Source: Bacilli bacterium
GTDB taxonomy: Bacteria > Bacillota_I > Bacilli_A > RFN20 > CAG-826
NCBI GenBank assembly: GCA_024413875.1
Contig: JAKSVY010000026.1
Location: 1-21,853, forward strand
Direction: 5' to 3'
Length of the DNA: 21,853 nt
Positions 1 to 16,621 of this stretch are shown here, in pieces (within the stretch, counting starts at the first letter, position 1; the number at the start of each line of letters is the position of its first letter). The translations under genes were made by a program, and so were the position numbers. Below the pieces are notes generated by a model. It was not told where the DNA came from. It saw only the letters and a program-made list of their open reading frames with translations, and searched no databases.

Positions 1-871
1 TATGCATGTTCAATGTACAACAGCTAAAAACTTATTAATCTCTAACGTTGCTCCAAGTGGTGCAATGACAACAGCTAACTATGGTACAGCAGTTACTTCA
101 ACACACGCTGTTGTTTCAGAATTAACACCAGGTTCTACAACAAAGTCACAAATTGCTTCTGGTACACCAGATTTCTTCTATACAGATGGAACAATTGATG
201 CTGTTACAGGTACAGTTGTTGCAAAAACAGCAACTACAGCAGGCACAAAGATCTATGTTGGTGCAGAAGGCAACCAAAACCAATATGTTAAGCACTCATT
301 CTGGTTAATGGCTCAATCTCTTGATGATCTCGCTCTCTCAATTGAATCAATTTCATTTAGCGAACCATTAAACGCAACAATTTCTCAATCATTAAGAATG
401 GGAATCTACTATGTAGATACAACAGATAAAACTGGTACATCTACTGATGTTTTAGCAAAAGATGAAGAAGGAACTACAATCGGTGTTGTTAAATCTGATA
501 TCTTCAATTTAGGAGCAAATGGCACTTCAAGTTATCTCGGCTTCAACGGTGGTGAAATTACCCCAACAACAGAAGAAGGTAAGTCACTTATTGGTGAATT
601 AACATCAGTCACAACTTCAGCAGCTAAAGTTGGTGAAACAACAGTTACAGAAGAAGTTAGACCACAAGCAGTTACATCAATTCCTAGTTATTCATTAGGC
701 AAAATTGAATCACAAAAAGACGCAGCATCTATTTCTGCATCTAAATGGCACGAAGTTGATCTTTACTTCTGGTATGAAGGACAAGATGAACACTGTACAG
801 CTAACGACGCTCTTGATGTTCAAGCAATTGATATCACTGTTAAGTTCCAAGCTATTGCGGTTGGCGCATAA
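1..871 (+). CDS. TasA/SipW-type secreted surface protein, 3' part
   Basis: Partial gene whose 5' end lies outside the window. The ATG at position 2 is probably an internal Met, because no signal peptide or ribosome binding site is visible. The 289 visible residues are Thr/Ser/Ala-rich, as expected of an extracellular protein. Two blocks match the three proteins encoded at 1706-4627: a strand with SLRMGIYYV (near residue 130) and a C-terminal WYEGQDEHC followed by a hydrophobic beta strand ending in ITVKFQAIAVGA. A [W/Y]-x-E-G-x-D-x-x-C signature near the C-terminus is typical of SipW-dependent TasA/camelysin-like proteins. No LPXTG sorting motif or C-terminal membrane anchor is seen, so anchoring must be by assembly or binding. 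A strong terminator follows. Family is inferred from motifs; the exact function is unknown. Confidence 0.7.
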   Translation, partial: MHVQCTTAKNLLISNVAPSGAMTTANYGTAVTSTHAVVSELTPGSTTKSQIASGTPDFFYTDGTIDAVTGTVVAKTATTAGTKIYVGAEGNQNQYVKHSFWLMAQSLDDLALSIESISFSEPLNATISQSLRMGIYYVDTTDKTGTSTDVLAKDEEGTTIGVVKSDIFNLGANGTSSYLGFNGGEITPTTEEGKSLIGELTSVTTSAAKVGETTVTEEVRPQAVTSIPSYSLGKIESQKDAASISASKWHEVDLYFWYEGQDEHCTANDALDVQAIDITVKFQAIAVGA

Positions 872-1488: not shown

Positions 1489-1518
1489 TTGACAAACTAA
1501 TAAGGCATTTGGTAATAT
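1489..1518 (+). promoter_or_regulatory. Putative promoter of the c-di-GMP/surface-fibre operon
   Basis: A consensus TTGACA (1489-1494), an 18-bp spacer and TAATAT (1513-1518) with an upstream TGG (extended -10, TGN). The predicted start near 1525 would leave the 5' strand of riboswitch stem P1 (1504-1512) untranscribed. A second possible promoter, TTGAAT (1475-1480) and TAATAA (1498-1503), starts slightly earlier. The true start needs mapping. Confidence 0.45.
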
Positions 1519-1597
1519 CAACCTCGCTAAAAGCAAAACCGAAGCGATTCGGCGACGCAAAACTACAGGGTCTTAAGAATTAAGACAGCCAGATGCC
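1504..1597 (+). ncRNA. GEMM-I (cyclic di-GMP class I) riboswitch aptamer
   Basis: By eye it contains the GEMM-I core: AGCAAAACC (1532-1540), stem P2 CCGAA/TTCGG closed by a GCGA (GNRA) tetraloop (1539-1552), the invariant GACGCAAA (1554-1561), CTACAGGG, stem P3 GTCTTAA/TTAAGAC (1570-1586), and AGCCAGATGCC at the 3' edge. P1 can form from GGCATTTGG (1504-1512) and CCAGATGCC (1589-1597), nine pairs with one G-U. There is an extra stretch of about 14 nt between P1 and the core compared with the usual compact form. In a hand alignment, the base matching the G that contacts the ligand in the Vibrio Vc2 aptamer is A, so ligand preference (c-di-GMP or cGAMP) is open. It lies 109 bp upstream of the first operon gene, and the operon itself encodes c-di-GMP proteins. 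Confidence 0.78.
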
Positions 1598-1602
1598 ATA
1601 AA

Positions 1603-1673
1603 GGAATTGAACTAGTCGGCCAATTGGACGATAGGTGAAAGGCGCGGCTGGACAATTCTACGGGACACTTTTT
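1603..1673 (+). ncRNA. Structured leader downstream of the riboswitch, probable expression platform
   Basis: GC-richer than its surroundings. GGAATTG (1603-1609) can pair with CAATTCT (1653-1659), and GTCGGCC with GGCTGGAC as an inner imperfect helix. The same AATTG can instead pair with CAATT at 1621-1625, so two exclusive folds exist. A T run (1669-1673) follows but is about 10 nt from the helix, a poor terminator geometry. No known RNA family recognised. Confidence 0.4.
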
Positions 1674-1705
1674 ATTTTAAATACTATTAACTGGAATTTT
1701 TCTTT

Positions 1706-2509
1706 ATGGACATGAAATATGTACGCCAGAGAAAAGCCAGAAGAATTATCGCAGCTTCAGGATCAGCATGTGCTGGTTTAGCAACCATTATTGCGGTTGT
1801 TGCACTGTTAGCTCAAAGACCAGGAGCATTTGTTGTTTCTATCGATAACTCAGCATCAAAATTATCACTTGGAGAACACGCTAATAGCACAGAACAAGTG
1901 ACTTATATGAATGCTGGTGAAGTTCCAACATTTGTTGAATATGAACATTCATTATTAAACGCAACTTATAGTGATGACGTTTTGGATAACGAACGTTTTG
2001 ACTATAAGGTTAATTCTTCTACGCGCGAGGGCTCGATTAAATTCTTCGCTACTACTTTCTATGTTAGAAACGTTGGAAAGGAAGCGGCAGCTTATTCTCT
2101 TTCACTTAATTTTACGAGTGTAACAAAAACTGTCACTGACAGCTATGGGTTAGACTCTATTTTACGTGTTCGTTTTTATGAAAATAAAGTTACTAACGAT
2201 GGTAATGAAACACACAATTTCTCAACATACGCTAAAGAAAGCGGTGTTCACACAAATATTGATGAAAATGGACAACCTTCATATCGTGAACCGATTTCTT
2301 CAAAAGATACTGAACTTGCAAAACCATTTGAATCTCAATATGTTTTATTAACATCAGACGTTAGCTCTATTGCCCCAAAAGAATCTTATCGTTACACATT
2401 TGTTTTCTGGCTCGAAGGTACAGATCCTGAATGTGTTGGCGAAGCTCCACTTGATAGCAGACTCAATTTAGGAGTAACCATTTCTGCTCATGAAGCAAAA
2501 GAAGAATAA
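1706..2509 (+). CDS. Exported TasA-like surface protein, first gene of operon
   Basis: 267 residues. A basic N-terminus (RQRKARR) precedes one hydrophobic segment (about 14-36), then RPGAFVVSIDN, which fits export followed by cleavage by a SipW-type peptidase. The mature part is beta-rich and shares two blocks with its neighbours: a conserved ILRVRFYEN strand and the C-terminal signature FWLEGTDPEC plus a final hydrophobic strand. The Cys after the EGxD motif matches the partial gene at 1-871 but is missing in the two later paralogues. The start at 1706 has only a weak upstream AACTGGA, so 1712 (second Met) is equally possible. It heads the riboswitch-controlled operon and overlaps the next gene by 20 bp. 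Likely a fibre or pilus-like surface subunit; function inferred from family signature and context. Confidence 0.65.
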   Translation: MDMKYVRQRKARRIIAASGSACAGLATIIAVVALLAQRPGAFVVSIDNSASKLSLGEHANSTEQVTYMNAGEVPTFVEYEHSLLNATYSDDVLDNERFDYKVNSSTREGSIKFFATTFYVRNVGKEAAAYSLSLNFTSVTKTVTDSYGLDSILRVRFYENKVTNDGNETHNFSTYAKESGVHTNIDENGQPSYREPISSKDTELAKPFESQYVLLTSDVSSIAPKESYRYTFVFWLEGTDPECVGEAPLDSRLNLGVTISAHEAKEE

Positions 2510-3572
2510 AACCCATTACGTCATTCTTGGATTGTACGCTATGACAGCATTATGTTTAACCGCTTCTATTAGCGGTACTTTTGCGTGGTATACATATTCA
2601 ACACGTACAGGTTTAACTTTTGAAGGCGCTTCTGTCGCAGATGCTGGATCACTTCAAATTGGTGTTGTATCAGACGTTCGTATTGATGACTATGAAGAAT
2701 ATTCTTTTGTTGAAGATACTTCTATTAAAAACAAATACATCTACTGGTCAATGACTGGATTAAACGCAAATAGAATTAATCACATTATCGAAGCTAATGG
2801 CTCTGCAACAAATAGAGTCGCCGCCATGACAAGCGGTAAATTCCACGGTGATGGTTCTACATTTACTTTGTATGACACACCTTCACATGGCACAAACTAT
2901 GTTTATGATGATAATGTTAACTCTATAACAAAGTTTGCTAGAAGTAACGAATACGTAACTCTTCCTTTAGCATTCCGCCTTGAAAATCAAGATAGACCGG
3001 GAACATACATGGCTGATAAACACATTTTCTTTACTCAATGCGATATTACATCTAGAGAAAGAATTTCTGATGCTGTAAGAATCTTTGCTTACACAAAAAC
3101 TAAAGCTGATGGCAACCTTATCAATCCAAATGAAAGATATGATGGATATGATGTTGTTGGCGGTGGCTTAGATTTAGATGTCAATGGTTTTTATGATATT
3201 TGGACCGATCCAGATACAGATAAACAATATGAATTCCCATATGGTGAATTTGTTGGTGGACAATATTTCTATGAAGATACACCTTTAGCTACAGACACAC
3301 ACGATATTGGTAAAGATGCTTTAGATACATTTACAGCAAATTACAAAGCTGGAACCAGAAAGATAGACTGGACAAAAACAGAACCAGAAAGAGCTGAGTT
3401 CAAAGGTATGTCAAATTTCATGAACCATAGAATTATAATGACAACTACAAACAATACCAACAACTATGGTTTCTTAACAATGCTTATTTATCTCGAGGGT
3501 TGGGATTTATCTGTTGTAAATAATGAACTTGGACATGAGTTCTCTATGGACCTTTCATTTGAAATGGATTAA
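2490..3572 (+). CDS. SipW-type exported surface protein
   Basis: 360 residues. N-terminal hydrophobic segment (about 10-30) ending in SGTFAWYTYST, the SipW-cognate signal-peptide pattern (G-T-[FY]-A-[WY]-[FY]). The long Asp/Tyr/Thr-rich mature region contains AVRIFAYTK, matching the SLRM/LRV strand of the paralogues, and a C-terminal MLIYLEGWDLS signature followed by SMDLSFEMD. It starts inside the previous gene (20-bp overlap) with only a distant GGAG (2471-2474), so translational coupling is likely. Only 2 bp separate it from the next gene. Expected to be cleaved by the peptidase encoded at 7565 and displayed at the surface. Confidence 0.75.
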   Translation: MKQKKNKTHYVILGLYAMTALCLTASISGTFAWYTYSTRTGLTFEGASVADAGSLQIGVVSDVRIDDYEEYSFVEDTSIKNKYIYWSMTGLNANRINHIIEANGSATNRVAAMTSGKFHGDGSTFTLYDTPSHGTNYVYDDNVNSITKFARSNEYVTLPLAFRLENQDRPGTYMADKHIFFTQCDITSRERISDAVRIFAYTKTKADGNLINPNERYDGYDVVGGGLDLDVNGFYDIWTDPDTDKQYEFPYGEFVGGQYFYEDTPLATDTHDIGKDALDTFTANYKAGTRKIDWTKTEPERAEFKGMSNFMNHRIIMTTTNNTNNYGFLTMLIYLEGWDLSVVNNELGHEFSMDLSFEMD

Positions 3573-3574
3573 TT

Positions 3575-4627
3575 ATGGAAACTAAAAAAAGATTAGTAAT
3601 TACATCCCTTGTTTTATCGAGTGCATTGCTCCTTGGAACAGTTGGAACTACAGTCGCATGGTTTGCTGGTTCACCTTATCTTGAATATAACAATATTAAT
3701 ATTGGAATTTCGGATAAAAACATTGAAATCTCAGATGATGATATCAACTGGGAATCATCTCTTGATAGTGAAGACCTTGGTATTGTTGATAACTTTAGAC
3801 CAATTTCTTCAATGTTCTCAAATGAATGGCTTAAAAGCAAAAAGACAACACCGGAATTTAGAAATGGCTTTACTACAGCTGATAAACAATTTATGAACGA
3901 TAGTGCGAAAGCATCTATCGCTTCAACTGGATACTTCTCGCATGCTATCTATTTAAAATCAGATGCAGATGCATATATTACGGTTGATCCAGAAAAAACT
4001 TACTTCGTTCCAAACGAAGAAAAAAACAAAGCTATTGTTAAGGATTTAAAACTTTATTATCCTGAATTAACAGAAGAACAAATTTTAGATAATCTCAATA
4101 GCATTAATAAATCATTAAGAATGTCCATCCTTGTTTTAAATAACAGCGGATCAGAACTCTTAAAGGATTATAAATATTACATCGTTGAGCCATATAAAGA
4201 TCGAGATACATTATTCGGTGGAGTTCTCGATATGGATGAGAACAAATATTATGACTCAGTTGGTGACTACGAAGCCGTTTATGGCGATTTAAAAAATACT
4301 GACAAAGCCGTTTATGATGAACCATCTGAATATGATGGAACAATTGAAGGGGAATACTCTGTATTCAACGCTAAAACAATGAGGGATGTTCACCATTTCA
4401 ATCTTGATGCATCACTTGAAAACGGATTTGAAATTGCAAATGAAAATTCAATTGCATTAGAAGATGCTAATAAAGAGATATTTATCCCTTTAGAAGCAAA
4501 CACATCTAGGAAACTTATCATTTCATTCTATATGGAAGGATGGGACTTAGATAATACCAATGTCACAATGTACTCTAACTTTATTATTAATGTTAGCTTC
4601 ATGATTGCGACAAATAGAGCCGAATAA
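3575..4627 (+). CDS. SipW-type exported surface protein
   Basis: 350 residues. The N-terminus (KKRLVITSLVLSS, then GTTVAWFAGS) is a SipW-cognate signal peptide with the A-W-F junction near residues 28-30. The acidic mature region carries SLRMSILVLNN, nearly the same block as SLRMGIYYV in the protein at the left edge, and ends with FYMEGWDLDNTN plus two hydrophobic strands. No sortase motif. It begins 2 bp after the previous stop with no clear Shine-Dalgarno, so coupling is likely. Together with the two preceding genes it forms a set of divergent paralogues of different length, as expected for major and minor subunits of one surface structure (inference). Confidence 0.75.
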   Translation: METKKRLVITSLVLSSALLLGTVGTTVAWFAGSPYLEYNNINIGISDKNIEISDDDINWESSLDSEDLGIVDNFRPISSMFSNEWLKSKKTTPEFRNGFTTADKQFMNDSAKASIASTGYFSHAIYLKSDADAYITVDPEKTYFVPNEEKNKAIVKDLKLYYPELTEEQILDNLNSINKSLRMSILVLNNSGSELLKDYKYYIVEPYKDRDTLFGGVLDMDENKYYDSVGDYEAVYGDLKNTDKAVYDEPSEYDGTIEGEYSVFNAKTMRDVHHFNLDASLENGFEIANENSIALEDANKEIFIPLEANTSRKLIISFYMEGWDLDNTNVTMYSNFIINVSFMIATNRAE

Positions 4628-4638
4628 GGAGGCATATT

Positions 4639-6189
4639 ATGAGAGCGTACTTTTCATACCTTTGGGAAATGCTAAAACAATTTTTTGGAGATGTGGGCCA
4701 ATTCTTTTATAAAGGCATTGTTTCTCCATGGACTGATTTAGGCCAAAACTTTAGAAATTACAATAACGTATTTAATGCCTACAAGGCTGATTTCGGCTTT
4801 GGCGGTTGGCTTATGTTCGTACTCTTTTTGCTCTTACTTGTTGGAGCACTTGGAGCAGCGGGCTATGGTTTATTCTTATTAATTAGAAAATATGCTAAGT
4901 TTGCAAAAACTGAAGTTGATAAAGATGAACTTAAACGCCAAGTCGCTAGACTTAACATTGAACTTTATGATTTATCACGTGAAAAGGAAAGAATTCTTGG
5001 TTTACAAATGCAATCTCTTGCTGGTAAGCAATTACCAACAGAAGGACCTGGAAGCGAAACAACAGAAGAAACTCTTGAAAACGGTTTATATGATGAATCT
5101 GCATCACGTTTCCCACGTTTAGTCCACGTTGATAATCTTTATGTTAATAAAGACACTGAAATTCCAGAGGTAGATGGCTTAACACTTGAAATTCTCTGTG
5201 AACAATTCAGAAACTACGCAGCTAGCCAACATGGTATTTATTATACCATCACAACTATCCGTCAAATGTTTGCGGGTATGGGTGCTGCAAAATTAATCAT
5301 CCTTGAAGGTATCTCAGGTACAGGTAAAACATCTATGCCACTTGAACTTGGTAGATTCTTTAAGCATGATGCAAAAATCTGTCCAGTTCAACCTAACTGG
5401 AAAGATAGATCAGAATTATTAGGTTACTATAACGAATTCACTAAGAAGTTTAACGCTACTGAATTCCTTGAAGCTTTATATACAACTTTGTATAGAAAAG
5501 ATACTAACCTAATTGTTCTCGATGAAATGAACTTAGCCCGTGTTGAATACTACTTCGCGGAATTCTTATCTATTATGGAAAACCCAGATCCAGCTAACTG
5601 GAACATTGAATTAATCGGTAACATCGATGCTCATGACCCTAAGTTATTCATGGAAGGTAAGATTAAAGTTCCACAAAACGTTGTATTCTTCGGTACAGCT
5701 AACAACGATGACTCTACATTCACAATTTCCGATAAGGTTTATGACCGTGCTATTTCATTATTCTTTGATAACAAAGGTATTCCATTTGAAAGTGATTACC
5801 AAGAAGCAGTGGATGTTCCATATGCTCAACTTCAAAGACTCTATGCAGAAGCTCTTGAAGAACACAAGATTGAAGATAACAACGAAAACCTTAAGAAATT
5901 CGAGGAACTTGATAATTTTGTTATTAAGAAATTCCGTCTCGCCTTCGGTAACCGTATTATGAAACAATTAAAACAATTCGTTCCTATCTACGTTGCTTGT
6001 GGTGGTTCAGAATTAGATGGTTTCGACTTCATCTTTACAAATAAGATTTTAAAGAAGTTCGAATCTTTAAACATTGCATTCTTAAAGAATGAGTTAACAG
6101 AACTCCAAAGAATGCTTGAAAAATTATATGGTAAGGGCACATTCCCAATGGCTAATAAGTTTGTAGAAAACTTACTTAAGATGAACTAA
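4639..6189 (+). CDS. Membrane-anchored McrB-like AAA+ ATPase
   Basis: 516 residues. The N-terminal 55 residues are amphipathic/aromatic, followed by one TM helix (about 57-83), a coiled-coil-like linker (about 92-125) and a cytosolic AAA+ module. Walker A is GISGTGKTS (224-232) and Walker B is LIVLDEMNLAR (291-301), the D-E-[MI]-N form characteristic of McrB/MoxR-type ATPases. Sensor 1 lies at GTANND (352-357), and DKVYDRA (365-371) holds a likely arginine finger. All residues for ATP/GTP hydrolysis are present. A clear Shine-Dalgarno (AAGGAGG, 4626-4632) sets the start. McrB proteins normally pair with a DNA-binding/nuclease subunit; here the next gene is a DUF2357-like partner, but the TM anchor and the surface-protein context point to work at the membrane. 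Class is sure, role inferred. Confidence 0.85.
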   Translation: MRAYFSYLWEMLKQFFGDVGQFFYKGIVSPWTDLGQNFRNYNNVFNAYKADFGFGGWLMFVLFLLLLVGALGAAGYGLFLLIRKYAKFAKTEVDKDELKRQVARLNIELYDLSREKERILGLQMQSLAGKQLPTEGPGSETTEETLENGLYDESASRFPRLVHVDNLYVNKDTEIPEVDGLTLEILCEQFRNYAASQHGIYYTITTIRQMFAGMGAAKLIILEGISGTGKTSMPLELGRFFKHDAKICPVQPNWKDRSELLGYYNEFTKKFNATEFLEALYTTLYRKDTNLIVLDEMNLARVEYYFAEFLSIMENPDPANWNIELIGNIDAHDPKLFMEGKIKVPQNVVFFGTANNDDSTFTISDKVYDRAISLFFDNKGIPFESDYQEAVDVPYAQLQRLYAEALEEHKIEDNNENLKKFEELDNFVIKKFRLAFGNRIMKQLKQFVPIYVACGGSELDGFDFIFTNKILKKFESLNIAFLKNELTELQRMLEKLYGKGTFPMANKFVENLLKMN

Positions 6190-6194
6190 TTATT

Positions 6195-7559
6195 ATGGTA
6201 AAAGCAGAATCAAGGTACAAAAAACTTCAAAAGAAATACACGACAAAAGTAGATCCTATTTTTGCTAGTGATTCCGAGGCGAAAAACGTCCTCGATTCTT
6301 TATCGCGCGGGCGTAATGCGTATCTACGTATGGATAGGTGCGAGAGTGCATCGATGGACAATAGCTGGATTAAGGCTATCGAAGATTGCTTGCCTGCCCT
6401 TGAAGATATTGTTATGAACCCAAGAAGAACCTTAACAACGGAAGCAGAAGTTGTTCCAGTTGAAAAGGCTAGACGTACAACAAAAGAATCAGTTATTCAC
6501 TTATCAGCGCATACTGAATATGTTAAGGAAGTTAAGCCTAATGGTGATGTTATTCCTTCAAAGATCTTAAACATTACTAATGAAGACTTCTATCAAACAT
6601 ATGAAAACAGATTCATCGCATCATTAATTAGAAGATTGCTTGTCTTTGTAAACCAACGTTATCAATACATTAAAGAATTCAATCCATTATCTGATAGCCA
6701 AATTCTTTATTACAAAACTAACGCGGTTGTTAATGGCGAAAATGTTGAAATTGAAACAAAGATTACGGTTGCTCACCCAACAAACGATGACTTCAATACT
6801 AAATCAGAAGAATTCATTTCTCGTATTGATCGAATTAGAGATGCGTTACGATTCTTCACTGGCTCTCGCTTTATGGCGATGTTCAAAGGTGAAAAGAACG
6901 TTCGTAACCCAATTCTTCAAACAAACATCATTAGAAAGAACCCACAATATCGTAAATGTTATGGATTATGGTGTTTTATTGAAAGATATACAAAGACTGG
7001 TATTGATGTAAAAGTTAATGAAGAAATTCAAAACTTTACACCTGAGGAACAACTTGATGTTAACAAAGCAATGTGGGCAAACCTTATTGCGTTAAAGGGT
7101 AAAGAGCCAATTGAAGAACCAGTTAAGAAAACTGAAAAATCATACGTTTCAAGAATCATTAAGACTCTTGATGAAGATATGTATACATTCTGGCACTACG
7201 TAAATGGTCCAGTTAAATTCATTCGTATCGATGATGAATATCGTAAATGGAAAGAATCTCCAAAAGATCTTAATCCATGGCCAACCAAAGTTATGGCGGA
7301 ATATAACAAAGACGAATACGAAGATAATAAAAAGAAGAAAGCTGAAACTAAAGCAGTTGATGATCTTATTAAACGTCGTAACAAAGAATCTAAGCAATAT
7401 CTTAGAGATACCGCTGAGGTAAATAGAAACTTAAAAGAAGAAAGGCTTGCTGCTAAACGCGCAATGGAAGAAGAGGCAAATGCAGCGGAAGAAGCAAGAC
7501 TTAACGCTATTAGACAAGCCCTTATGGACGAAGCTAACAAATTCAATAACGAAGATTAA
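6195..7559 (+). CDS. DUF2357/McrC-like partner of the McrB-like ATPase
   Basis: 454 residues, no TM or signal peptide. The N-terminal half has features I associate with DUF2357 proteins that accompany McrB-type ATPases: WIKAIEDCLPALEDIVMNP (58-76) and TYENRFIASLIRRLL (135-149). McrC-type partners often end in a PD-(D/E)XK nuclease; I see no such motif here. Instead the last 90 residues (about 365-454) form a long charged, alanine-rich coiled coil ending in NAIRQALMDEANKF. That end closely resembles the C-terminal helices of the proteins at 1048-1422 and 7565-8320. The gene starts 5 bp after the ATPase stop without a recognisable ribosome binding site, implying coupled translation and a stoichiometric partnership. 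Probably a regulator or adaptor of the ATPase rather than a restriction nuclease. Confidence 0.55.
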   Translation: MVKAESRYKKLQKKYTTKVDPIFASDSEAKNVLDSLSRGRNAYLRMDRCESASMDNSWIKAIEDCLPALEDIVMNPRRTLTTEAEVVPVEKARRTTKESVIHLSAHTEYVKEVKPNGDVIPSKILNITNEDFYQTYENRFIASLIRRLLVFVNQRYQYIKEFNPLSDSQILYYKTNAVVNGENVEIETKITVAHPTNDDFNTKSEEFISRIDRIRDALRFFTGSRFMAMFKGEKNVRNPILQTNIIRKNPQYRKCYGLWCFIERYTKTGIDVKVNEEIQNFTPEEQLDVNKAMWANLIALKGKEPIEEPVKKTEKSYVSRIIKTLDEDMYTFWHYVNGPVKFIRIDDEYRKWKESPKDLNPWPTKVMAEYNKDEYEDNKKKKAETKAVDDLIKRRNKESKQYLRDTAEVNRNLKEERLAAKRAMEEEANAAEEARLNAIRQALMDEANKFNNED

Positions 7560-7564
7560 TTATT

Positions 7565-8320
7565 ATGGAAAAAGAGAAAAAACCAAAATCGAAACTTAGA
7601 AAGATACTCGACGGTCTTGTCGTTGGTGTTTTCGGTTCTTTGATGGTGTTAGTTCTCGCGTTCAATATTATTAATAGGGTTTCTTCGTCAAGAGGAGATG
7701 GGATGGTATTTGGAATGCAATATCCTGTTGTCCTTACTGACTCAATGGAACCCGAATATATGGTTAAAGACGTTCTTATCGTTAAGAAAGTCAAACCAGC
7801 TGATATTAACAAAGGTGATGATATTTCCTTCTATTACGATATCGAAAGAAATGGTAAAGAAAGAAGTGTTACCCACCGTATATCAGACATTGTTGTTGAT
7901 ATGAGCAAAGCTGAGGGTCAAGGAAGATATACCTTTACAGCTCATGGTATCAACAAACAATCTGAACAATGTGGTGGTGGAGATTGTACATATCAAACCC
8001 AAACATTTAACGAAACAAAAGTCATTGGAAGAGTTGTTAAAAGATCAGGATTCCTCACTGGCTACTACAAAGTATCAACATCACTAATTGGTCTTATCGG
8101 ATTTATCTTAGTGCCATGTCTATATCTTGTAGTTACAAGTGTCATTGATATCACAAAGACACTTCGAGAAAGTGAACAGGCTGAAGAACTCGGTATTAAC
8201 ACAGTTGACGCAATTCCAATTGAGCCAAATAAAGATGATCCGCTAGCAGGATTATCCGAAGAAGAAAAAGAAGCTTTAAAAAAGCAAATGCTAGATGAAA
8301 TATTAGGAGGGAAGAAATAA
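7565..8320 (+). CDS. Signal peptidase I, SipW/ER type, with cytoplasmic tail
   Basis: 251 residues: TM1 about 15-36, an external catalytic domain, TM2 about 170-195, then a 55-residue cytoplasmic tail. Box B is TDSMEPEYMVKD with nucleophile Ser60; box D is KGDDISFYYD; box E is SVTHRISD with His104 in place of the Lys of ordinary bacterial enzymes, the SipW/ER arrangement. The usual GDxNxxxD segment is changed to AHGINKQSEQ, followed by a Cys pair (Cys136, Cys141) that could form an external disulfide. The tail contains VDAIPIE (214-220), also found in the protein at 18019-19623, and ends in GLSEEEKEALKKQML, resembling the tails encoded at 1048 and 6195. In TasA systems a dedicated SipW cleaves the fibre subunits, so the operon's surface proteins are its likely substrates. 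Confidence 0.85.
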   Translation: MEKEKKPKSKLRKILDGLVVGVFGSLMVLVLAFNIINRVSSSRGDGMVFGMQYPVVLTDSMEPEYMVKDVLIVKKVKPADINKGDDISFYYDIERNGKERSVTHRISDIVVDMSKAEGQGRYTFTAHGINKQSEQCGGGDCTYQTQTFNETKVIGRVVKRSGFLTGYYKVSTSLIGLIGFILVPCLYLVVTSVIDITKTLRESEQAEELGINTVDAIPIEPNKDDPLAGLSEEEKEALKKQMLDEILGGKK

Positions 8321-9861
8321 TGAAAAGAAGTAATAACAAAGCTTGGTTAATATTAAGTATTGTTGGTTTCGCTACTTCAATTATTTTGTTTGCAGTATTA
8401 ACAGTACTATCTTTCTTTTATCCAGAACTTATCGCAAATCCTTTTTACATTCTTTCTTATGCGATCGTTGTTCCAGTAATTTTAGCAATTGCCGCTTTAG
8501 CGCTTTCTAAATATTATTCAACAAAGAAAGAACTTAGAAATCTCCGTATTGAAAACCAATATAACTTTGGAAGAGAATGTGATTTCTATAACTACTTAAT
8601 GTTCGCTGATAGAATCAATAAATTAAATAAGACTCACAAGGGTCAAAGTGCATACATTATTTATTTCTCGGCATCTACACTTGAAATCACATTAAATGCT
8701 GAACGTAATGAAGATGCTACTAAATTAAATAACTCAATCGCAGAATATTTAGTTGATTACTTCAAAGCACTTCCTGCAAAGAAGAAAGAAAACATTGTCT
8801 TCTGCTTCTATCATGGTTGTTTTGTTATCTATCTTTACGGTAATGAAGAAGACATGATTGCTTTTAAGGTCGGACTTAGCGACGCAACAACCAATGTTGC
8901 AAGAGCGCAAAACCTTAAAGTTTATGCTCGTCCAATCTTTGGTATTAAATTAGTTGATGAAGAAAAAGACTTATTCAATAACATGGATGATGCTTCTATC
9001 GCACGTAATATCTCTGAAAGAAACTATGATGAATCAACAATTTATTCACCATCTTTTAGAAAGGCTACAACAAAAGAAGAAATCGAAGAAATTGAAGATG
9101 CTATTAGAAATAATGAATTCGTTGTTTACTATCAACCAAAATACCTTTTATCATCAAAGGCATTTAACTCAGCAGAAGCTTTAGTTAGATGGAATAGTAA
9201 GGTTCATGGTTTAGTTGCACCAGGAAAGTTCATCAATAAGGCTGAACTTGGTGGTCTTATTCACGAACTTGATATCTATGTCTTTAGACAAGTTTGCCGC
9301 GATTTAGCGGACCAAAAGAAACGCGGAAGAAGAATCCTTCCAGTATCTGTTAACTTCTCTCAATATGAATTCTATTCACCATCATTCCTTCAAGATATTG
9401 ATACAATCATGAAAGAATTCAATATTGAACCATACAACATTCATGTTGAAATTACTGAACCAACTGCACGTAAAAACGAATTCATGACAATCGCTATCTT
9501 AAATAAGCTTAAAGCTAAAGGTATTAAGATTGCTATGGATGACTATGGCATTGGTTATTCAAACTTAGCAAACTTAAACAAATTACCATTTGATACAGTT
9601 AAGATTGATAAGTCTTATATCGACGGTATTGTTACAAATGTTAAAACACGTGAAATTGTTAAGCTTTTAATCAACTTCTGTCACGCTAACGGTATTGAAG
9701 TTGTTGCAGAAGGTGTTGACTCAGCTGATCAAGTCGATATCTTAAAGAAGATTAAGTGCGACACAATTCAAGGATATTATTTCTCAAAACCTGTTCCTAG
9801 AACTGAGTATGAGAAACTTGTTTCTAAGTCATTCCAAGCATTAGATAAGGAGGAAAGATAA
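8320..9861 (+). CDS. Membrane c-di-GMP phosphodiesterase (degenerate GGDEF, intact EAL)
   Basis: 513 residues. Two TM helices (about 9-32 and 42-64), a GGDEF-fold region (about 88-215) where the signature is replaced by FYHGCF (so no cyclase activity expected), and a complete EAL domain (about 252-505). Catalytic/metal residues are all visible: EAL 286-288, Asn345, Glu377 (HVEITE), the Asp pair 407-408 (DDYGIGYS), KID 428-430, Glu464 (AEGVD), QG 484-485. Expected reaction: c-di-GMP to pGpG at the inner membrane face. The start codon overlaps the previous stop by one base (TAATG), with GGAGGG upstream at 8307-8312. It sits behind a c-di-GMP-type riboswitch, so enzyme and sensor could form a feedback loop (inference). 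Confidence 0.93.
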   Translation: MKRSNNKAWLILSIVGFATSIILFAVLTVLSFFYPELIANPFYILSYAIVVPVILAIAALALSKYYSTKKELRNLRIENQYNFGRECDFYNYLMFADRINKLNKTHKGQSAYIIYFSASTLEITLNAERNEDATKLNNSIAEYLVDYFKALPAKKKENIVFCFYHGCFVIYLYGNEEDMIAFKVGLSDATTNVARAQNLKVYARPIFGIKLVDEEKDLFNNMDDASIARNISERNYDESTIYSPSFRKATTKEEIEEIEDAIRNNEFVVYYQPKYLLSSKAFNSAEALVRWNSKVHGLVAPGKFINKAELGGLIHELDIYVFRQVCRDLADQKKRGRRILPVSVNFSQYEFYSPSFLQDIDTIMKEFNIEPYNIHVEITEPTARKNEFMTIAILNKLKAKGIKIAMDDYGIGYSNLANLNKLPFDTVKIDKSYIDGIVTNVKTREIVKLLINFCHANGIEVVAEGVDSADQVDILKKIKCDTIQGYYFSKPVPRTEYEKLVSKSFQALDKEER

Positions 9862-9863
9862 TT

Positions 9864-10649
9864 ATGTTTTTAATTATTGGTAGTAGCCATGATGATATCT
9901 TGTTCTACGAAACTTCTTTAAAGAATGCTCGTGAAGAAGTCTTAATGAATAAATATCACGCTTTAATCGGTACAATTAACAATCAAGAAGTTATGCTTCT
10001 TTCTGATGTATATACTTCTTACATTACAACTGCTTTATTAACACACATCATTGATAAATACATTATCCTTCTTGTTATCTGTGTTGGCCGTTGCCAAGCA
10101 TTTTCAGATAATCTCAAAGTTGGTCAAGTTGTAATTTCAAGAAACACTATCTTTGGTGATGTTAACCAAGTCGCAGCAGTTAAAGGTAATAGCCTTGGTC
10201 AAATCCCAGGATTTAGTCGTTTCCTTGAAAGCAATGACTTACTTGTTTCAACAATGCATAAGGTCTTTGAACGTATCGGTCTTGATACGGTTAAAGAAGC
10301 AACATTCATTTCTGGATCTATGTTAAGAAATAGCCAAGAATTCGTTCTTAATATTAAAAACGAAAAGGCTACAACAAAGCGTTATGATGAAATTGAAAAG
10401 AAAGAAATCGCTCACTTAGGAGAATCTATCGTTACTGATAGTGAATCTGGCGGTATCGCTCTTGGATGTTCATTATTTGGTATTTCTTACATCACTGTTA
10501 AAGTTGTTGAAGGTATGGCAGGGGATAATGTATCTTTAGATACTTACTTAAAAATACTTAAACAATATTCATATGTCGGTAAGGCAATTCTCTCATTTAT
10601 TGGTGAATTATCACGTAACGACGTTGAAAGAATGGAGGATCAACAATAA
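9864..10649 (+). CDS. MTAN/PNP-fold protein, probably catalytically altered
   Basis: 261 residues resembling the nucleoside phosphorylase/MTA-SAH nucleosidase superfamily. Visible: the N-terminal strand MFLIIGSSHDD, GTINNQEVMLL (36-46), the G-rich CVGRCQAFSDNLKVGQVVIS region (73-92), and the nucleoside-binding stretch TDSESGGIA (191-199). That stretch aligns with VDMEATAIA of E. coli MTAN, so the ribose-binding Glu (194) is kept. The expected S-D general acid that follows appears as VEGMAG, so the catalytic Asp seems lost, and the first Glu is Asp. It may bind a nucleoside or nucleotide without cleaving it, or use another chemistry. AAGGAGG (9849-9855) gives a good start. Position between two c-di-GMP-type proteins suggests a nucleotide-sensing role (inference). 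Confidence 0.65.
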   Translation: MFLIIGSSHDDILFYETSLKNAREEVLMNKYHALIGTINNQEVMLLSDVYTSYITTALLTHIIDKYIILLVICVGRCQAFSDNLKVGQVVISRNTIFGDVNQVAAVKGNSLGQIPGFSRFLESNDLLVSTMHKVFERIGLDTVKEATFISGSMLRNSQEFVLNIKNEKATTKRYDEIEKKEIAHLGESIVTDSESGGIALGCSLFGISYITVKVVEGMAGDNVSLDTYLKILKQYSYVGKAILSFIGELSRNDVERMEDQQ

Positions 10650-13600
10650 TGAAACCTAGAAGATTTAAAACATCATTAAAGAACCTCCTTAATGTCGCAA
10701 TTATTGCATCTCTTGTTCTTGGCTCACTTGCTTTCCTTACATTAGGATTTGCTATTGTCTCATACGCTCTTAACTTAGGTAAAGCAGTTACAAGTCTTGC
10801 CTTTGTTTTAGTGGGTTTAGTAGTAATCTTCCTCATCGTAGATATTGCAATTCTTATCACTGTTCAAAAGAAGGTCTATCATGATAACCTCCTTCAAACA
10901 ATTAGAGATAACTTAGTTGCATTATCAAACAAAAAGAAAGCTGTTTTAGTCCATGACCAAGAAACAGTCATCTCAGATTTCAAGGAATTAAATTTACTCC
11001 TTGATGAAACAATTAGAATTTGTGATCAAACAATTGTTTATAACAAAATTACTAACTATAACGAAATCGGAATTGAATTCATCAATGACTCAAAATATGT
11101 TTGTTCATATGAATCATTAACATCAAAAATCCCTGATTTAATTCTCGGTAATGAAATGTTTAGATGTGCTTTCGTTGATTTATTCTACGAAGTAGGTAAA
11201 AACGCTAAGTTAGATGAAGAAACAGAAACTAGACTTACTAAGACAATTATTCATGAACTTAAGTATGAAAATATCTTAATTGCTAAACACGCGGGTGCTA
11301 ACCCAGGATTCTTAGTATATGTTCCACACTTTGAATCTATTTCTCAATTAGGTGAAGAAGTCGATTTATTACTTCGTAATTTATCAATCATTCAACCAAC
11401 TGAAACAGGTACAGAAGTTGTAATGTGTAAGGCCGCTGTTGTTGCTTACCCATTCTCAGAAATTACTAACATCTTAGCGGACTTAAAGTATGCTGCTAAG
11501 CAAAACAAGATTCTTTCAATCTTCCTTCCACCTTATCAAGCAAAACAAAATGATAATCTTCTTCAATCAACAATGAACCTTGCAAACGTTACAAGATTCC
11601 TTCAAAAGTTTGCATCTCTTACATTCGATGAAAAAGATTTATCTTCTAACTCTAAAAAGGTTAATAAAGTTTTAAGCCAAGTTACTGACTATTATGGTTT
11701 TGAAACATCTGGTTTGATTTACTATAACGACGCTCAAGAAAAGTTTGAAGTGGCTTATGAATACTCACTTCAAGGATTATCGCTTTTCAATAAGGGTGAA
11801 TTAGTAGATGCTAACCTTGTTAACGTTATTGATAGAGTAAAAGATGATGATATGTCATATTACTTCTCAAATAGAAAACACGTTAACTCATTACTTGCTG
11901 GATATCTTGACTATTACATGATTTCTTCAGGTCAATTCTATGTAATTAGAGACGCTAATAGAATCTATGGTCTTGTCTATTTCTTAAATAGAAATAAAGA
12001 AGTTAACCTTGATGCTTACTTAAGAGAAGGTTTATTAACATTCTCATACTTCATCTCTTCTTACGCTCGTGAAATCTTAACAAGAATGGGTGCTAAGAAC
12101 TCAGATATTAGATTTAACGATATTGCTCGTTTAACAAACACAAAACTTTATTCTATTGATAAAGAATCATACCGTTTAGTTTATATCTCTGATGCTTTAC
12201 AAGATGTTATTCCAGAAGCAACTCTTAGAAAACCATGTTACGAAGTGTTATATGGATTAAAGGAACCTTGTGAAAACTGTCCTTTGATTGCACGTAATAG
12301 AAAAGTTGCCGCTCTTGGTGGCACTAAATACGAAACTAGTGTTGCTATTAAGCATAACGATGATGATACTGTCTCATTAATGCTTATAGAACATAACGAA
12401 AAAGCTGTATCTAGAGATAGATACGATCCATCATTACTCATTAATACTTATTCATCATTCATTGATAGAATTGATAATGCATTTATTGATGGTACTAAAG
12501 GATACGTTCTCTTATTAACATTAGATAACATTAAAGAAATTATCGAAGTCTATGGTAATGAAGGTTATTCAACATTAATTAAAGACTTCTCAAAGAAAGT
12601 TTCTTCAAAGTTAAAACACATTAATAATATCTATCTTTATAGAGATAACGTCTTAGCAGTAGTGCTCCCTGAAGCTAATAGACACACAGTCATTGATGAT
12701 GTAGAAAACTTATTCAAGATTTCAAAAGAAACAATGATTGATGATATGAATGTTCAATTAAACATTTCTTACATCACAAACAAATATCCAGAAGCATTTA
12801 AGAATGTCACGGATGTTATTAAGAGCATTGATAAGAAACTTACTAAGTTTGTTGATCCTAAGCGTAGTGATTATCTTTACTTCACAGAAACAGGTTATTC
12901 TAGACAAGCATCTAGAGAAGCCTTCATTCTTGATGTTATTGATGCATCATTTGTTAAAGATACATTCGGTGTTCGTTTACAACCTGAAATTAACACAAAA
13001 CACCGCATTTACGGCGCAGAAACTCTTATTAGATTAACTGATACCTATCGCGATATTGTTCTCCCTACAGGAGAAGTTATCATGGTTGGTGAACGTCATA
13101 ATAAGATTAACATCATTACTGATGCTTTAATTAACACAATTGGTAACTTATATAGAGATAATGGTTATCAAACATTCAAGTCACACGGTCTTGAAAATAT
13201 CTCAATTAACACAAACGTCGATTATTTAAGAGATGGAAACTTACTTGAAAAATTAGGATCACTTGCAAAAGCTTATATGATTCCAAGAGACTTCCTTGCC
13301 CTTGAATTCTCTGAAGTTGATGTTTATAACAACAAAGAAGAATTCGCTATGCTTGCAAAGAAGATTCGTGGATGCGATGTTCAAATCATTGTTGACCACT
13401 ATACAGGTAATAAGTTAAGTGTTGAAGAACTTAAGAAATATGATGTTTCACAAATTAAGTTTGAATATTCATTAATCAAGTCAATTACACTTTATAAGTC
13501 AGATCTTGATAGAGTTTCATTACTCTCAAGAGCCGCTAGTGACTCAGCTATTAAGCCAGTTCTTATCGGTATTGAAGCACCTCTTCAATATGAACTTGTT

Positions 13601-13699
13601 AAAGATAACTGTGGTGACTTCCTCATTCAAGGTGAACTCTTATGTGGACCTCTTGAACCAGAAGACTTCATCAAGACTCTTAACAAGATGAATAAATAG
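10649..13699 (+). CDS. Large membrane signalling protein with PAS-like, degenerate GGDEF and degenerate EAL domains
   Basis: 1016 residues. Two TM helices (about 14-40, 47-73), a long cytosolic region including a GAF-like stretch (about 330-490), a PAS-like segment with Cys530, Cys541 and Cys544 (PCYEVL...EPCENCPL), then a GGDEF-fold domain (about 600-745) whose signature is replaced by YRDNVL. The C-terminal EAL-fold domain (about 775-1010) has lost catalysis: the motif is AETL, the Asp pair is DHYTG, KID is KFE, AEGVE is GIEAP; only a QG near residue 1000 remains. It is therefore probably a c-di-GMP receptor, scaffold or regulator, not an enzyme. It overlaps the preceding stop by one base and has ATGGAGG upstream. 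Last gene of the operon. Confidence 0.8.
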   Translation: MKPRRFKTSLKNLLNVAIIASLVLGSLAFLTLGFAIVSYALNLGKAVTSLAFVLVGLVVIFLIVDIAILITVQKKVYHDNLLQTIRDNLVALSNKKKAVLVHDQETVISDFKELNLLLDETIRICDQTIVYNKITNYNEIGIEFINDSKYVCSYESLTSKIPDLILGNEMFRCAFVDLFYEVGKNAKLDEETETRLTKTIIHELKYENILIAKHAGANPGFLVYVPHFESISQLGEEVDLLLRNLSIIQPTETGTEVVMCKAAVVAYPFSEITNILADLKYAAKQNKILSIFLPPYQAKQNDNLLQSTMNLANVTRFLQKFASLTFDEKDLSSNSKKVNKVLSQVTDYYGFETSGLIYYNDAQEKFEVAYEYSLQGLSLFNKGELVDANLVNVIDRVKDDDMSYYFSNRKHVNSLLAGYLDYYMISSGQFYVIRDANRIYGLVYFLNRNKEVNLDAYLREGLLTFSYFISSYAREILTRMGAKNSDIRFNDIARLTNTKLYSIDKESYRLVYISDALQDVIPEATLRKPCYEVLYGLKEPCENCPLIARNRKVAALGGTKYETSVAIKHNDDDTVSLMLIEHNEKAVSRDRYDPSLLINTYSSFIDRIDNAFIDGTKGYVLLLTLDNIKEIIEVYGNEGYSTLIKDFSKKVSSKLKHINNIYLYRDNVLAVVLPEANRHTVIDDVENLFKISKETMIDDMNVQLNISYITNKYPEAFKNVTDVIKSIDKKLTKFVDPKRSDYLYFTETGYSRQASREAFILDVIDASFVKDTFGVRLQPEINTKHRIYGAETLIRLTDTYRDIVLPTGEVIMVGERHNKINIITDALINTIGNLYRDNGYQTFKSHGLENISINTNVDYLRDGNLLEKLGSLAKAYMIPRDFLALEFSEVDVYNNKEEFAMLAKKIRGCDVQIIVDHYTGNKLSVEELKKYDVSQIKFEYSLIKSITLYKSDLDRVSLLSRAASDSAIKPVLIGIEAPLQYELVKDNCGDFLIQGELLCGPLEPEDFIKTLNKMNK

Positions 13700-13712
13700 T
13701 TCATATTAAATT

Positions 13713-13745
13713 AAAAGTTGGTATGCAAAACGTACCAACTTTTAT
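13713..13745 (+). terminator. Strong intrinsic terminator of the 12-kb operon
   Basis: AAAAGTTGGTA (13713-13723) pairs with TACCAACTTTT (13733-13743); two further pairs can extend into the loop. The A/T ends make it potentially bidirectional. Confidence 0.9.
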
Positions 13746-13795
13746 TTAAAAATAAAACAGTTAGCAAAGACAACTTTTTAATTGTAATTTTCCTA

Positions 13796-13824
13796 TTTAT
13801 ATTTGTTAACTTCTATAATATAAT
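13796..13824 (+). promoter_or_regulatory. Putative promoter of the FAD-dependent dehydrogenase gene
   Basis: TTTATA (13796-13801), a 17-bp spacer and a perfect TATAAT (13819-13824). A second overlapping TATAAT begins at 13814. Predicted start about 13831, giving a leader of roughly 65 nt. Confidence 0.55.
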
Positions 13825-13829
13825 CAGTT

Positions 13830-13872
13830 GTAAGAATTTTCTTACATCCTAAGTTCCTATTCGGGACTTTTT
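13830..13872 (+). promoter_or_regulatory. Leader with hairpin plus terminator-like hairpin (possible attenuator)
   Basis: Between the promoter and the ribosome binding site lie GTAAGAA/TTCTTAC (13830-13845) and then AAGTTCC/GGGACTT (13851-13869) followed directly by TTTTT (13868-13872), the shape of an intrinsic terminator. If the upstream promoter is right, most transcripts would stop before the gene unless the hairpin is relieved. No known riboswitch recognised. Confidence 0.5.
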
Positions 13873-15354: not shown

Positions 15355-15786
15355 TTATTTTGTATCACGTGATACAATGGAACTATTTTTAGCAGTTTCG
15401 CATGCTTTAGATATATCTAGGCTATGAAGAACATCATAGTTGTCACACAAGTATTCAATAGGTATTTCTTTCCAAGCCACAATGGATGCTACTTTGTACA
15501 AATAACAGTAATATCGATAAAAATAACCAATAAAATGTAATAATGGATAGGTGAATGTAGTAACCTCTTTTGCTTTAGAAATTTTCTTTAATTTCGAAAC
15601 AATGATGGCTTGATCTTCGTAGTTATCAAAATATACACCTTCATCCATATTTTTTGCATATATTGATTTCATGTATCTGCCGATGAAATCTTTTTCATCA
15701 AGCTTCTCATCGATGCATGATTTGAATATACTTGCCTGGATTGAGCATAGTTTTAATGCTTCTTTTTCATTATTTAAGTAATTCAT
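15355..15786 (-). CDS. Small partner protein of the HTH-DUF3990 gene
   Basis: 143 residues, no TM. Family not firmly recognised. The N-terminal part (KLDEKDFIGRYMKSIYAKNMDEG) resembles small helical proteins encoded next to DUF3990 genes, where a phrase like FIxxYMxSxxAxxxD recurs, and the rest is Tyr/Leu-rich and helical. Its start overlaps the end of the upstream HTH-DUF3990 gene by 17 bp, so the two are co-translated. The last codons (IVSRDTK and stop) are written by an 18-bp palindrome identical to the operator-like site in front of the module. An antitoxin or modifier role for the ART-like partner is likely from layout but not proven. Confidence 0.6.
   Translation of the reverse strand: MNYLNNEKEALKLCSIQASIFKSCIDEKLDEKDFIGRYMKSIYAKNMDEGVYFDNYEDQAIIVSKLKKISKAKEVTTFTYPLLHFIGYFYRYYCYLYKVASIVAWKEIPIEYLCDNYDVLHSLDISKACETAKNSSIVSRDTK
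15360..15377. repeat. 18-bp perfect palindrome, copy 1 (3' end of module)
   Basis: TTGTATCACGTGATACAA, identical to the copy at 16629-16646. It lies inside the C-terminal codons of the partner gene. The pair brackets the module. Confidence 0.95.
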
Positions 15787-16621
15787 CTATATATTTACCC
15801 ATTCTTCGATAATTTAATTTGGCCATCTCTATCTTATTTTTCGATGCTTCTGTTTGTTCGAATTTTATTGTTTTGTATTTTTGTTTTTGAATTTGAGGTA
15901 TATAAAGGCAGGTAATTCCTTCTATGTTTGAAAGGGCTTTATTATTGAGGAAAACATATTGTTTACCTAAATAATTAGCTCGTATTGAGTGACGGCATTG
16001 TTCATCAGTAATTTCTTTTGCGGCAAATTCATTAAGTGTTTCGTACATTGAGTTGTCTGCGATAGGTGCAATGATTACATCACTCTTTTTAATTTTTTCA
16101 ATAATCTTTTGTATGATTGGATGATTTTCGTATTCTTTGATTCTTCCACGAAAATAAGAAATAGCGAGCATCCATTCAATATCCGCAGACAATTCATAAA
16201 TGTTCAAGTTATCTTTTCTAAGATAAAAAGCATATACATAATTTGAGCGATATGAAGAAATGAAGGTGGCGGCTTGCTGTAATGTTTCTCCGGCGTAAAA
16301 TCCCTTCCCAAAATCATTTATTTCCCTTGAGTAATCTAGGGAAATATTTGTTTTAATTTCGTTTTTTGAACCATGGAAAAGAAGAATTCTATTGCCTTTA
16401 TCATCATCCATAACATCAGCGTGATCCTCATTAAAATTCAAACCATGTTCATATGCAAAAGAATAGATACCTTCCAGAGAAGGAGAAGACGGCTTGTATG
16501 CGTTGGTCTCAATTCTTGCAATAGTGACTCTCGGTATTCCAGTTTGTTCTGAAAGTTCATTTTGCGTTAAGTCAAAGTATTTTCTAATGTTAATGCAGTC
16601 AGTTGCGAAATAGTTTTTCAT
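15770..16621 (-). CDS. XRE-type HTH fused to DUF3990 (ADP-ribosyltransferase-like) domain
   Basis: 283 residues. N-terminal helix-turn-helix (about 8-62; NIRKYFDLTQNELSEQTGIP then RVTIARIETN) followed by a DUF3990 domain: LLFHGS (80-85), NDFGKGFYAG (102-111) with QQAATF after it, and WMLAISYFRGR (150-160). The H-G-S and F-G-x-G-F-Y motifs match NAD-binding elements of ADP-ribosyltransferase-like folds. The HTH fusion suggests autoregulation at the palindrome just upstream. The ATG has no Shine-Dalgarno, and the promoter predicts a start of transcription at or next to it, so the mRNA is probably leaderless. AT content and codon choice look higher in AT than neighbours, consistent with an acquired toxin-antitoxin-like or phage-defence cassette between housekeeping genes. 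Target unknown. Confidence 0.75.
   Translation of the reverse strand: MKNYFATDCINIRKYFDLTQNELSEQTGIPRVTIARIETNAYKPSSPSLEGIYSFAYEHGLNFNEDHADVMDDDKGNRILLFHGSKNEIKTNISLDYSREINDFGKGFYAGETLQQAATFISSYRSNYVYAFYLRKDNLNIYELSADIEWMLAISYFRGRIKEYENHPIIQKIIEKIKKSDVIIAPIADNSMYETLNEFAAKEITDEQCRHSIRANYLGKQYVFLNNKALSNIEGITCLYIPQIQKQKYKTIKFEQTEASKNKIEMAKLNYRRMGKYIDELLK

What the first reader, a model, noticed from the sequence alone, without database searches (positions are those of the whole stretch)
1489..13743. Candidate new system: riboswitch-controlled surface-fibre export operon with an McrB-like membrane ATPase and a c-di-GMP module
One uninterrupted co-directional run of nine genes, with overlaps or gaps of 2-11 bp, combines TasA/SipW-type surface proteins, a dedicated signal peptidase, a membrane-anchored McrB-like AAA+ with a DUF2357-like partner, an active-looking EAL enzyme, an MTAN-fold protein and a degenerate GGDEF-EAL protein, behind a GEMM-I riboswitch. 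Tap/SipW/TasA operons and McrBC pairs are each known, but I know of no described system that unites them. Inference: the ATPase pair drives or gates assembly of the surface structure in response to c-di-GMP.
Basis: partly seen in the sequence, partly recalled or inferred. Interest (0 to 1): 0.85.

Follow-up and report, generated by a model that had tools for sequence, protein, structure and literature searches.

The report
c-di-GMP-switched surface-fibre operon with McrBC-like motor
Many uncultured gut bacteria carry a conserved gene cluster that appears to use a repurposed DNA-restriction motor, stripped of its DNA-cutting part, together with a dedicated signal peptidase and a c-di-GMP sensor, to build or control protein fibres on the cell surface.

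Summary
The nine-gene run (1706-13699, +) behind a c-di-GMP-I riboswitch (1522-1600) is real and is a conserved unit. Among 80 related loci plus the window, AAA-DUF2357-SipW stand in this order in 65 of 66 testable cases, and the riboswitch lies before the first surface gene in 49 of 53. A class-wide sample keeps the association, less completely. 'No described system' is too strong: a 2024 eLife paper names, in one paragraph, 'CoCoPALM' systems (McrB-like GTPase with membrane/coiled-coil part, McrC homologue, signal peptidase); this is very probably one. Added here: the c-di-GMP module, the probable cargo (SipW-type surface proteins, weakly TasA/FimA-like), absence of a recognisable nuclease, two apparent pseudo-enzymes, and a cytosolic tail shared by SipW and an overlooked membrane protein (1048-1422). 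Best explanation: a nuclease-less McrBC-type motor at the membrane drives or gates SipW-dependent fibre assembly under c-di-GMP control; the motor's action is inferred. Against a strict reading, a derived branch keeps the motor pair without SipW beside a giant surface-type protein, and tandem and 900-aa relatives lack SipW and riboswitch. New variant of a known kind.

The parts
2..871 (+). S0: surface-type protein, probably cut by the window edge; separate transcript upstream
   Evidence...WYEGQD... end like the operon's surface proteins; terminator-like hairpin 889-912; one relative by profile, in L001
1048..1422 (+). M1: two-TM membrane protein whose cytosolic tail (DLSDEQKEAIRQALLKDM) resembles the SipW tail
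   Evidence: terminator-like hairpin 1436-1452
1489..1518 (+). promoter-like site, extended -10
   Evidence: consensus match only; not above chance in number
1522..1600 (+). c-di-GMP-I (GEMM-I) riboswitch aptamer
   Evidence: Rfam RF01051 54.4 bits; before the first surface gene in 49 of 53 testable loci
1706..2509 (+). Sa: membrane-anchored (one N-terminal TM) surface protein, possible fibre base
   Evidence: first gene after the riboswitch in most loci; role inferred
2490..3572 (+). Sb: SipW-type surface protein (TFAWY signal region, YLEGWD end); 0-3 copies in relatives by profile label
3575..4627 (+). Sc: SipW-type surface protein; AF2 model pLDDT 88.8, best-ranked PDB rows TasA fibre, an archaeal filament and FimA (weak, tied Z)
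4639..6189 (+). McrB-like AAA+ NTPase with N-terminal TM segment; Walker A GISGTGKTS, Walker B LDE, NxD-type motif NNDD
6195..7559 (+). DUF2357 / McrC N-domain protein, no nuclease recognised, with long C-terminal helix
7565..8320 (+). SipW-class signal peptidase with cytosolic tail
8320..9861 (+). membrane EAL phosphodiesterase with conserved active-site motifs
9864..10649 (+). MTAN-fold protein without conserved catalytic residues as aligned (probable pseudo-nucleosidase)
10649..13699 (+). membrane degenerate GGDEF-EAL protein, probable c-di-GMP receptor
13851..13869 (+). terminator-like hairpin after the operon

Best explanation
A c-di-GMP-regulated surface-fibre assembly system built on a domesticated McrBC. 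Shown by sequence: c-di-GMP-I riboswitch, surface proteins with SipW-class signal regions, SipW-class peptidase, McrB-like NTPase with TM anchor, McrC-type activator domain without a recognisable nuclease, intact EAL motifs, degenerate GGDEF-EAL and MTAN folds, and long co-inheritance. Inferred steps: c-di-GMP sets transcription of the operon through the riboswitch; SipW processes the surface proteins, which polymerise by donor-strand exchange on a membrane-anchored base (Sa); the NTPase hexamer, stimulated by the DUF2357 protein, sits under the membrane, docks to the tail shared by SipW and M1, and uses NTP hydrolysis to recruit, remodel or gate the processing/assembly site; EAL and the two pseudo-enzymes set or read local c-di-GMP as feedback.
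Confidence: 0.6

Rival explanations
1. The motor pair is still a defence module (type IV restriction descent) that guards the envelope or aborts infection; the surface genes are merely co-transcribed or are what it guards.
For: McrB/McrC descent; the PADLOC candidate-defence model PDC-M26A matches the AAA at 4.9e-43; the eLife paper treats its clade within type IV restriction systems; a 900-aa relative (L112) stands beside a small CBS-domain protein with an RNDLAHN motif that looks HEPN-like (motif recalled).
Against: No nuclease family found in the operon or in 34 DUF2357 orthologues; conserved operonic order with SipW, surface proteins and riboswitch, not the patchy shuffling expected of defence genes (recalled); riboswitch control.
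Confidence: 0.15
2. The motor is a quality-control or extraction device: it pulls stalled precursors or SipW/M1 out of the membrane, or hands them to a protease, and is not needed for assembly.
For: Membrane AAA+ with tail-like client sequences.
Against: No protease other than SipW among the conserved genes; McrB-type motors are not known unfoldases (recalled).
Confidence: 0.15
3. The motor only regulates SipW activity; fibres self-assemble without it as TasA and BsaA do.
For: C. perfringens sipW-bsaABCRSD makes BsaA polymers, and recombinant BsaA polymerises in E. coli (PMC7395162, passages), with no such motor named there.
Against: Near-absolute linkage of motor pair and SipW in the 80 loci.
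Confidence: 0.1

Closest known systems
CoCoPALM systems (Bell et al. 2024 eLife, PMC11090510; section 7 read)
   Same: McrB-like NTPase with NxD-type motif and N-terminal TM part, McrC homologue with coiled coil, associated signal peptidase
   Different: The paper gives one paragraph and speaks of 'pilus assembly factors'; SipW has 0 occurrences in its main text. c-di-GMP riboswitch/EAL module, surface cargo, pseudo-enzymes and shared tail are not in the section and passages I saw; its supplement was not seen
tapA-sipW-tasA of Bacillus subtilis; sipW-tasA and calY of B. cereus (PMC13082335, passages)
   Same: SipW peptidase, SipW-processed precursors, TasA-like strand proteins
   Different: No McrBC-type motor, riboswitch or EAL genes in those operons (recalled; PMC13082335 main text has 0 occurrences of ATPase, AAA, c-di-GMP, riboswitch)
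sipW-bsaABCRSD of Clostridium perfringens (PMC7395162, passages)
   Same: SipW-dependent filament operon
   Different: Controlled by a two-component system; no motor pair among the operon genes named
E. coli and T. gammatolerans McrBC
   Same: McrB AAA+ domain; McrC N-domain-like fold
   Different: Window pair has a TM anchor and no recognised nuclease or DNA-binding domain

Membership tests
CoCoPALM | McrB-like GTPase domain | tested here: met
   McrB accounts for all 3 PDB sequences matched at E<=1, best 0.0016; GTP preference not testable
CoCoPALM | NxD signature, usually followed by D or E | tested here: met
   N[NKR]DD in 178 of 180 long motors parsed, overlapping loci included; NxDE in the 900-aa relatives. 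NNDD could also be read as NxxD
CoCoPALM | GTPase fused to FtsB-like TM and coiled-coil part | tested here: inconclusive
   TM segment 49-83 by hydropathy; no FtsB/DivIC family among the 25 shown of 46 Pfam families for 21 members
CoCoPALM | McrC homologue with DUF2357 and coiled coil | tested here: met
CoCoPALM | associated signal peptidase family gene | tested here: met
   SipW-class gene at 7565-8320; 65 of 66 loci
McrBC restriction system | PD-(D/E)xK nuclease in McrC | tested here: not met
   0 of 34 orthologues match a PD-(D/E)xK family in Pfam at E<=1. By sequence only; a degenerate fold is not excluded
TapA-SipW-TasA fibre system | SipW-class signal peptidase | tested here: met
   SipW model 4.1e-13 but 49 bits against a cut-off of 190: SipW-class, not the Bacillus equivalog
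TapA-SipW-TasA fibre system | TasA-fold fibre subunit | tested here: inconclusive
c-di-GMP-I riboswitch | aptamer above Rfam gathering score | tested here: met
   54.4 vs 35 bits
MTA/SAH nucleosidase | catalytic Glu/Asp residues | tested here: not met
   fold matched (1.6e-8); the positions aligned with E. coli Glu174 and Asp197 are not among the columns conserved at 90% in 54 sequences. Asp10 and Asp192 next to catalytic positions are conserved, so a shifted site is not excluded; residue numbers recalled

The most novel reading that the evidence does not exclude
A distinct, class-wide, NTP-driven machine for building Gram-positive surface fibres: a restriction motor stripped of its nuclease, clamped under the membrane to the tails of SipW and M1, with expression and perhaps activity set by c-di-GMP; sister branches have switched the cargo to giant cadherin-like or transglutaminase/antigen-like surface proteins.
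Probability: 0.45. Interest if true: 0.9.

Novelty: new variant of a known kind. Interest (0 to 1): 0.7.

Why it matters
TasA-type fibres are thought to assemble outside the cell without a cytosolic motor (recalled; compare the donor-strand papers listed). If a McrBC-derived motor works in their assembly, this is a new route of energising surface structures and a clear case of a defence machine turned to construction. It also gives the CoCoPALM group, named in one paragraph of the one paper and preprint found, testable cargo, regulation and a docking motif. The motor family is common: 99 of 296 genomes of the class sample match it at E<=1e-30.

Tried and rejected
Viral contigs: no relative. 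Foldseek gave no match at E<=0.001 for either model; VIA-align second looks were used instead. A phylum sample shared all 54 of its matching genomes with the class sample and was not counted as independent. DUF2357 C-terminus as carrier of the shared tail: looked plausible in the window, rejected because the tails are not conserved. No clear terminator or other expression platform after the riboswitch. Tail against the SipW model TIGR02228: 6 of 45 such genes near a motor and 1 of 105 elsewhere overlap a tail match, among the 150 rows typed in from a cut list; that model's best rows are mostly other SipW genes. L051 (antisense ORF apparently preferred by my ORF picker) and L161 gave no motor ORF and dropped out of motor counts; the broken motor of L194 was split and left out of the long class. 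L209 and L210 repeat L146 and L113 and were left out. Searches for prior description; listings only, several cut (for instance 15 of 613 papers). Only PMC11090510 and its preprint name CoCoPALM; the 8 other rows look unrelated.
Full report
What is there. One search confirms nine + strand ORFs from 1706 to 13699 with overlaps of 1-20 bases or gaps of 2-11 bases. One search finds one Rfam match in the window, a c-di-GMP-I riboswitch at 1522-1600 (54.4 bits, gathering score 35). One search places a promoter-like site at 1489-1518, a terminator-like hairpin before it (1436-1452) and another after the last gene (13851-13869), so the likely transcription unit is 1489-13869. Promoter-like sites are no commoner than in shuffles (44 against 56.4), terminator-like ones are (20 against 6.3). 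Gene by gene: three surface-type proteins without a Pfam family above cut-off, two of them with an AW[FY] signal region and an EGWD end; an AAA+ protein that matches only McrB among solved structures (E 0.0016); DUF2357 (6.5e-7, above cut-off); a SipW-class signal peptidase; EAL (5.6e-70); an MTAN fold (1.6e-10); and a GGDEF-EAL protein.

Is it a unit? Their titles name uncultured Bacilli, Bacillales, Erysipelotrichaceae and the like, many from gut or rumen; one is labelled Gammaproteobacteria (L009). These are the best hits and so a biased set. In them plus the window (81 sources), AAA-DUF2357-SipW stand in order in 65 of 66 cases with enough sequence; EAL follows in 59 of 62, the MTAN fold in 56 of 59 and the GGDEF-EAL protein in 44 of 55. 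A covariance model built from 12 of the riboswitches was run over them: 49 of the 81 have the switch right before the first surface gene, 4 with enough upstream sequence do not (L064, L070, L077, L080), 3 have under 250 bases there, and 25 hold no complete first surface gene by my labels. Whole genomes of 44 carriers hold 1-6 c-di-GMP-I riboswitches in 43 cases and none in 1; the 14 control genomes hold none.

Control for bias. In a class-wide sample 99 of 296 genomes have a motor match at E <= 1e-30. I fetched neighbourhoods of all hits at E <= 1e-150 except one, three of them being already held among the 80 loci, and of chosen weaker hits representing variants. Of 81 long membrane-type motors, the next gene is DUF2357 in 73 of 78 with 2.5 kb downstream, SipW lies within 6 kb on the same strand in 38 of 49 with both flanks of 5 kb, EAL or GGDEF genes within 8 kb in 22 of those 49, and a riboswitch upstream in 31 of 55 with 5 kb upstream. 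The script's classes mixed some types, so I recounted its rows by hand: 900-aa relatives have SipW in 0 of 3 and the riboswitch in 0 of 4 (a fifth 900-aa motor, L111, has a SipW nearby but no upstream sequence); tandem relatives 0 of 9 and 0 of 11; the 600-aa type has SipW in 4 of 5 and the riboswitch in 0 of 5. SipW-like genes are common at genome level, in 186 of 296 genomes, and c-di-GMP-I riboswitches occur in 94 of 296, so it is the closeness that counts. In a tree of 183 motors (FastTree, rooted on the 900-aa type, two loci present twice) riboswitch plus SipW occur on both main branches of a 148-member clade (support 0.999), which argues for an ancestral link. The MTAN-fold gene was labelled in only two of the class loci (L152, L153), so that part belongs to the window's own lineage. 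Tandem switches, up to four in a row, precede some operons (L135).

Exceptions. Nine motors without SipW form one branch (support 0.984) nested inside the SipW clade. In the member examined (L143) the neighbour is a 2983-aa protein, open at the locus edge, with 11 cadherin-like stretches. Two tandem-motor loci examined stand beside large proteins with YDG, antigen I/II-like or transglutaminase domains (L118, L119), and one locus beside a T2SSE ATPase (L144). So the pair is not tied to SipW, but cell-surface or secretion genes recur beside it.

Signalling proteins. The EAL protein keeps its active-site motifs in nearly all of 56 sequences (DDFG or DDYG in 54). The last gene has lost the GGDEF motif and, in the window, the second Asp of the EAL DD pair, so it is likely a receptor. 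In the MTAN fold the positions aligned with two catalytic acids are not conserved in 54 sequences, though two neighbouring Asp are; I read it as a probable ligand-binding pseudo-enzyme.

A shared tail. A pattern written from these tails occurs in 39 of 62 SipW, 23 of 36 M1-labelled ORFs and 0 of 867 other ORFs at the C-terminus in the 81 sources, and once inside 1034 ORFs (the pattern was made from the tails, so only the absence elsewhere is informative). A profile of 20 tails searched in 12 whole genomes, most of which contributed tails to it, gives 24 matches, of which 23 are SipW or M1 by position and ORF length. The M1 profile has 57 matches in 49 of 296 class genomes, 46 of them within 8 kb, same strand, of the motors typed in. 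Full-length M1 is found in only 5 genomes; most matches cover the second TM segment and tail, in ORFs the size of SipW mostly just upstream of the motor. I infer a common cytosolic partner, most simply the motor pair.

Comparison with print. Bell et al. 2024 (PMC11090510; section 7 read; passages) define CoCoPALM in one paragraph and postpone the rest; the main text has no 'SipW'. In the rows listed by searches I saw no paper joining this motor to SipW, TasA-like proteins or c-di-GMP; the library lacks most subscription journals and several listings were cut. That McrB is a GTPase stimulated by McrC is and the abstract start of PMC7680126.

Verdict. How the motor acts is the open point. On re-checking, counts for the relatives' classes were mended and limits added; the odds did not need to change.

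Noticed in passing
L135 19426-19877; L133 15184-15507; L147 14481-14807: Three or four c-di-GMP-I riboswitches in tandem before one surface operon.
   Followed up: partly
L003 19301-19376; L007 13179-13254; L048 19459-19535: A second riboswitch just after the GGDEF-EAL gene, before the next gene.
   Followed up: no
L011 4599-11594; L020 1567-8289: DUF2357 gene grown to 2331 aa with 14 Big_2 Ig-like stretches (L011) and to 2240 aa (L020).
   Followed up: partly
L118-L123: Tandem motors AAA-DUF2357-AAA, most loci with very large ORFs nearby; two examined have transglutaminase, YDG or antigen I/II-like domains.
   Followed up: partly
L144 7713-16104: Motor pair beside a T2SSE secretion ATPase and small membrane proteins, Tad-like (Tad likeness recalled).
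   Followed up: no
L131-L136, L181, L184: Two motor operons about 15 kb apart in one genome (G122, G177, G059, G068).
   Followed up: no
window 15355-16621 (-): HTH + DUF3990 protein overlapping a 143-aa ORF; may be a toxin-antitoxin-like pair; DUF3990 profile matched in only 2 loci.
   Followed up: no
window 18019-19623: Protein with a long acidic/basic low-complexity stretch and a C-terminal DUF2188 domain.
   Followed up: no
L112 7309-9665 (-): Beside a 900-aa motor relative: DUF2357-profile protein and a small CBS-domain protein bearing an RNDLAHN, HEPN-like motif (motif recalled).
   Followed up: no
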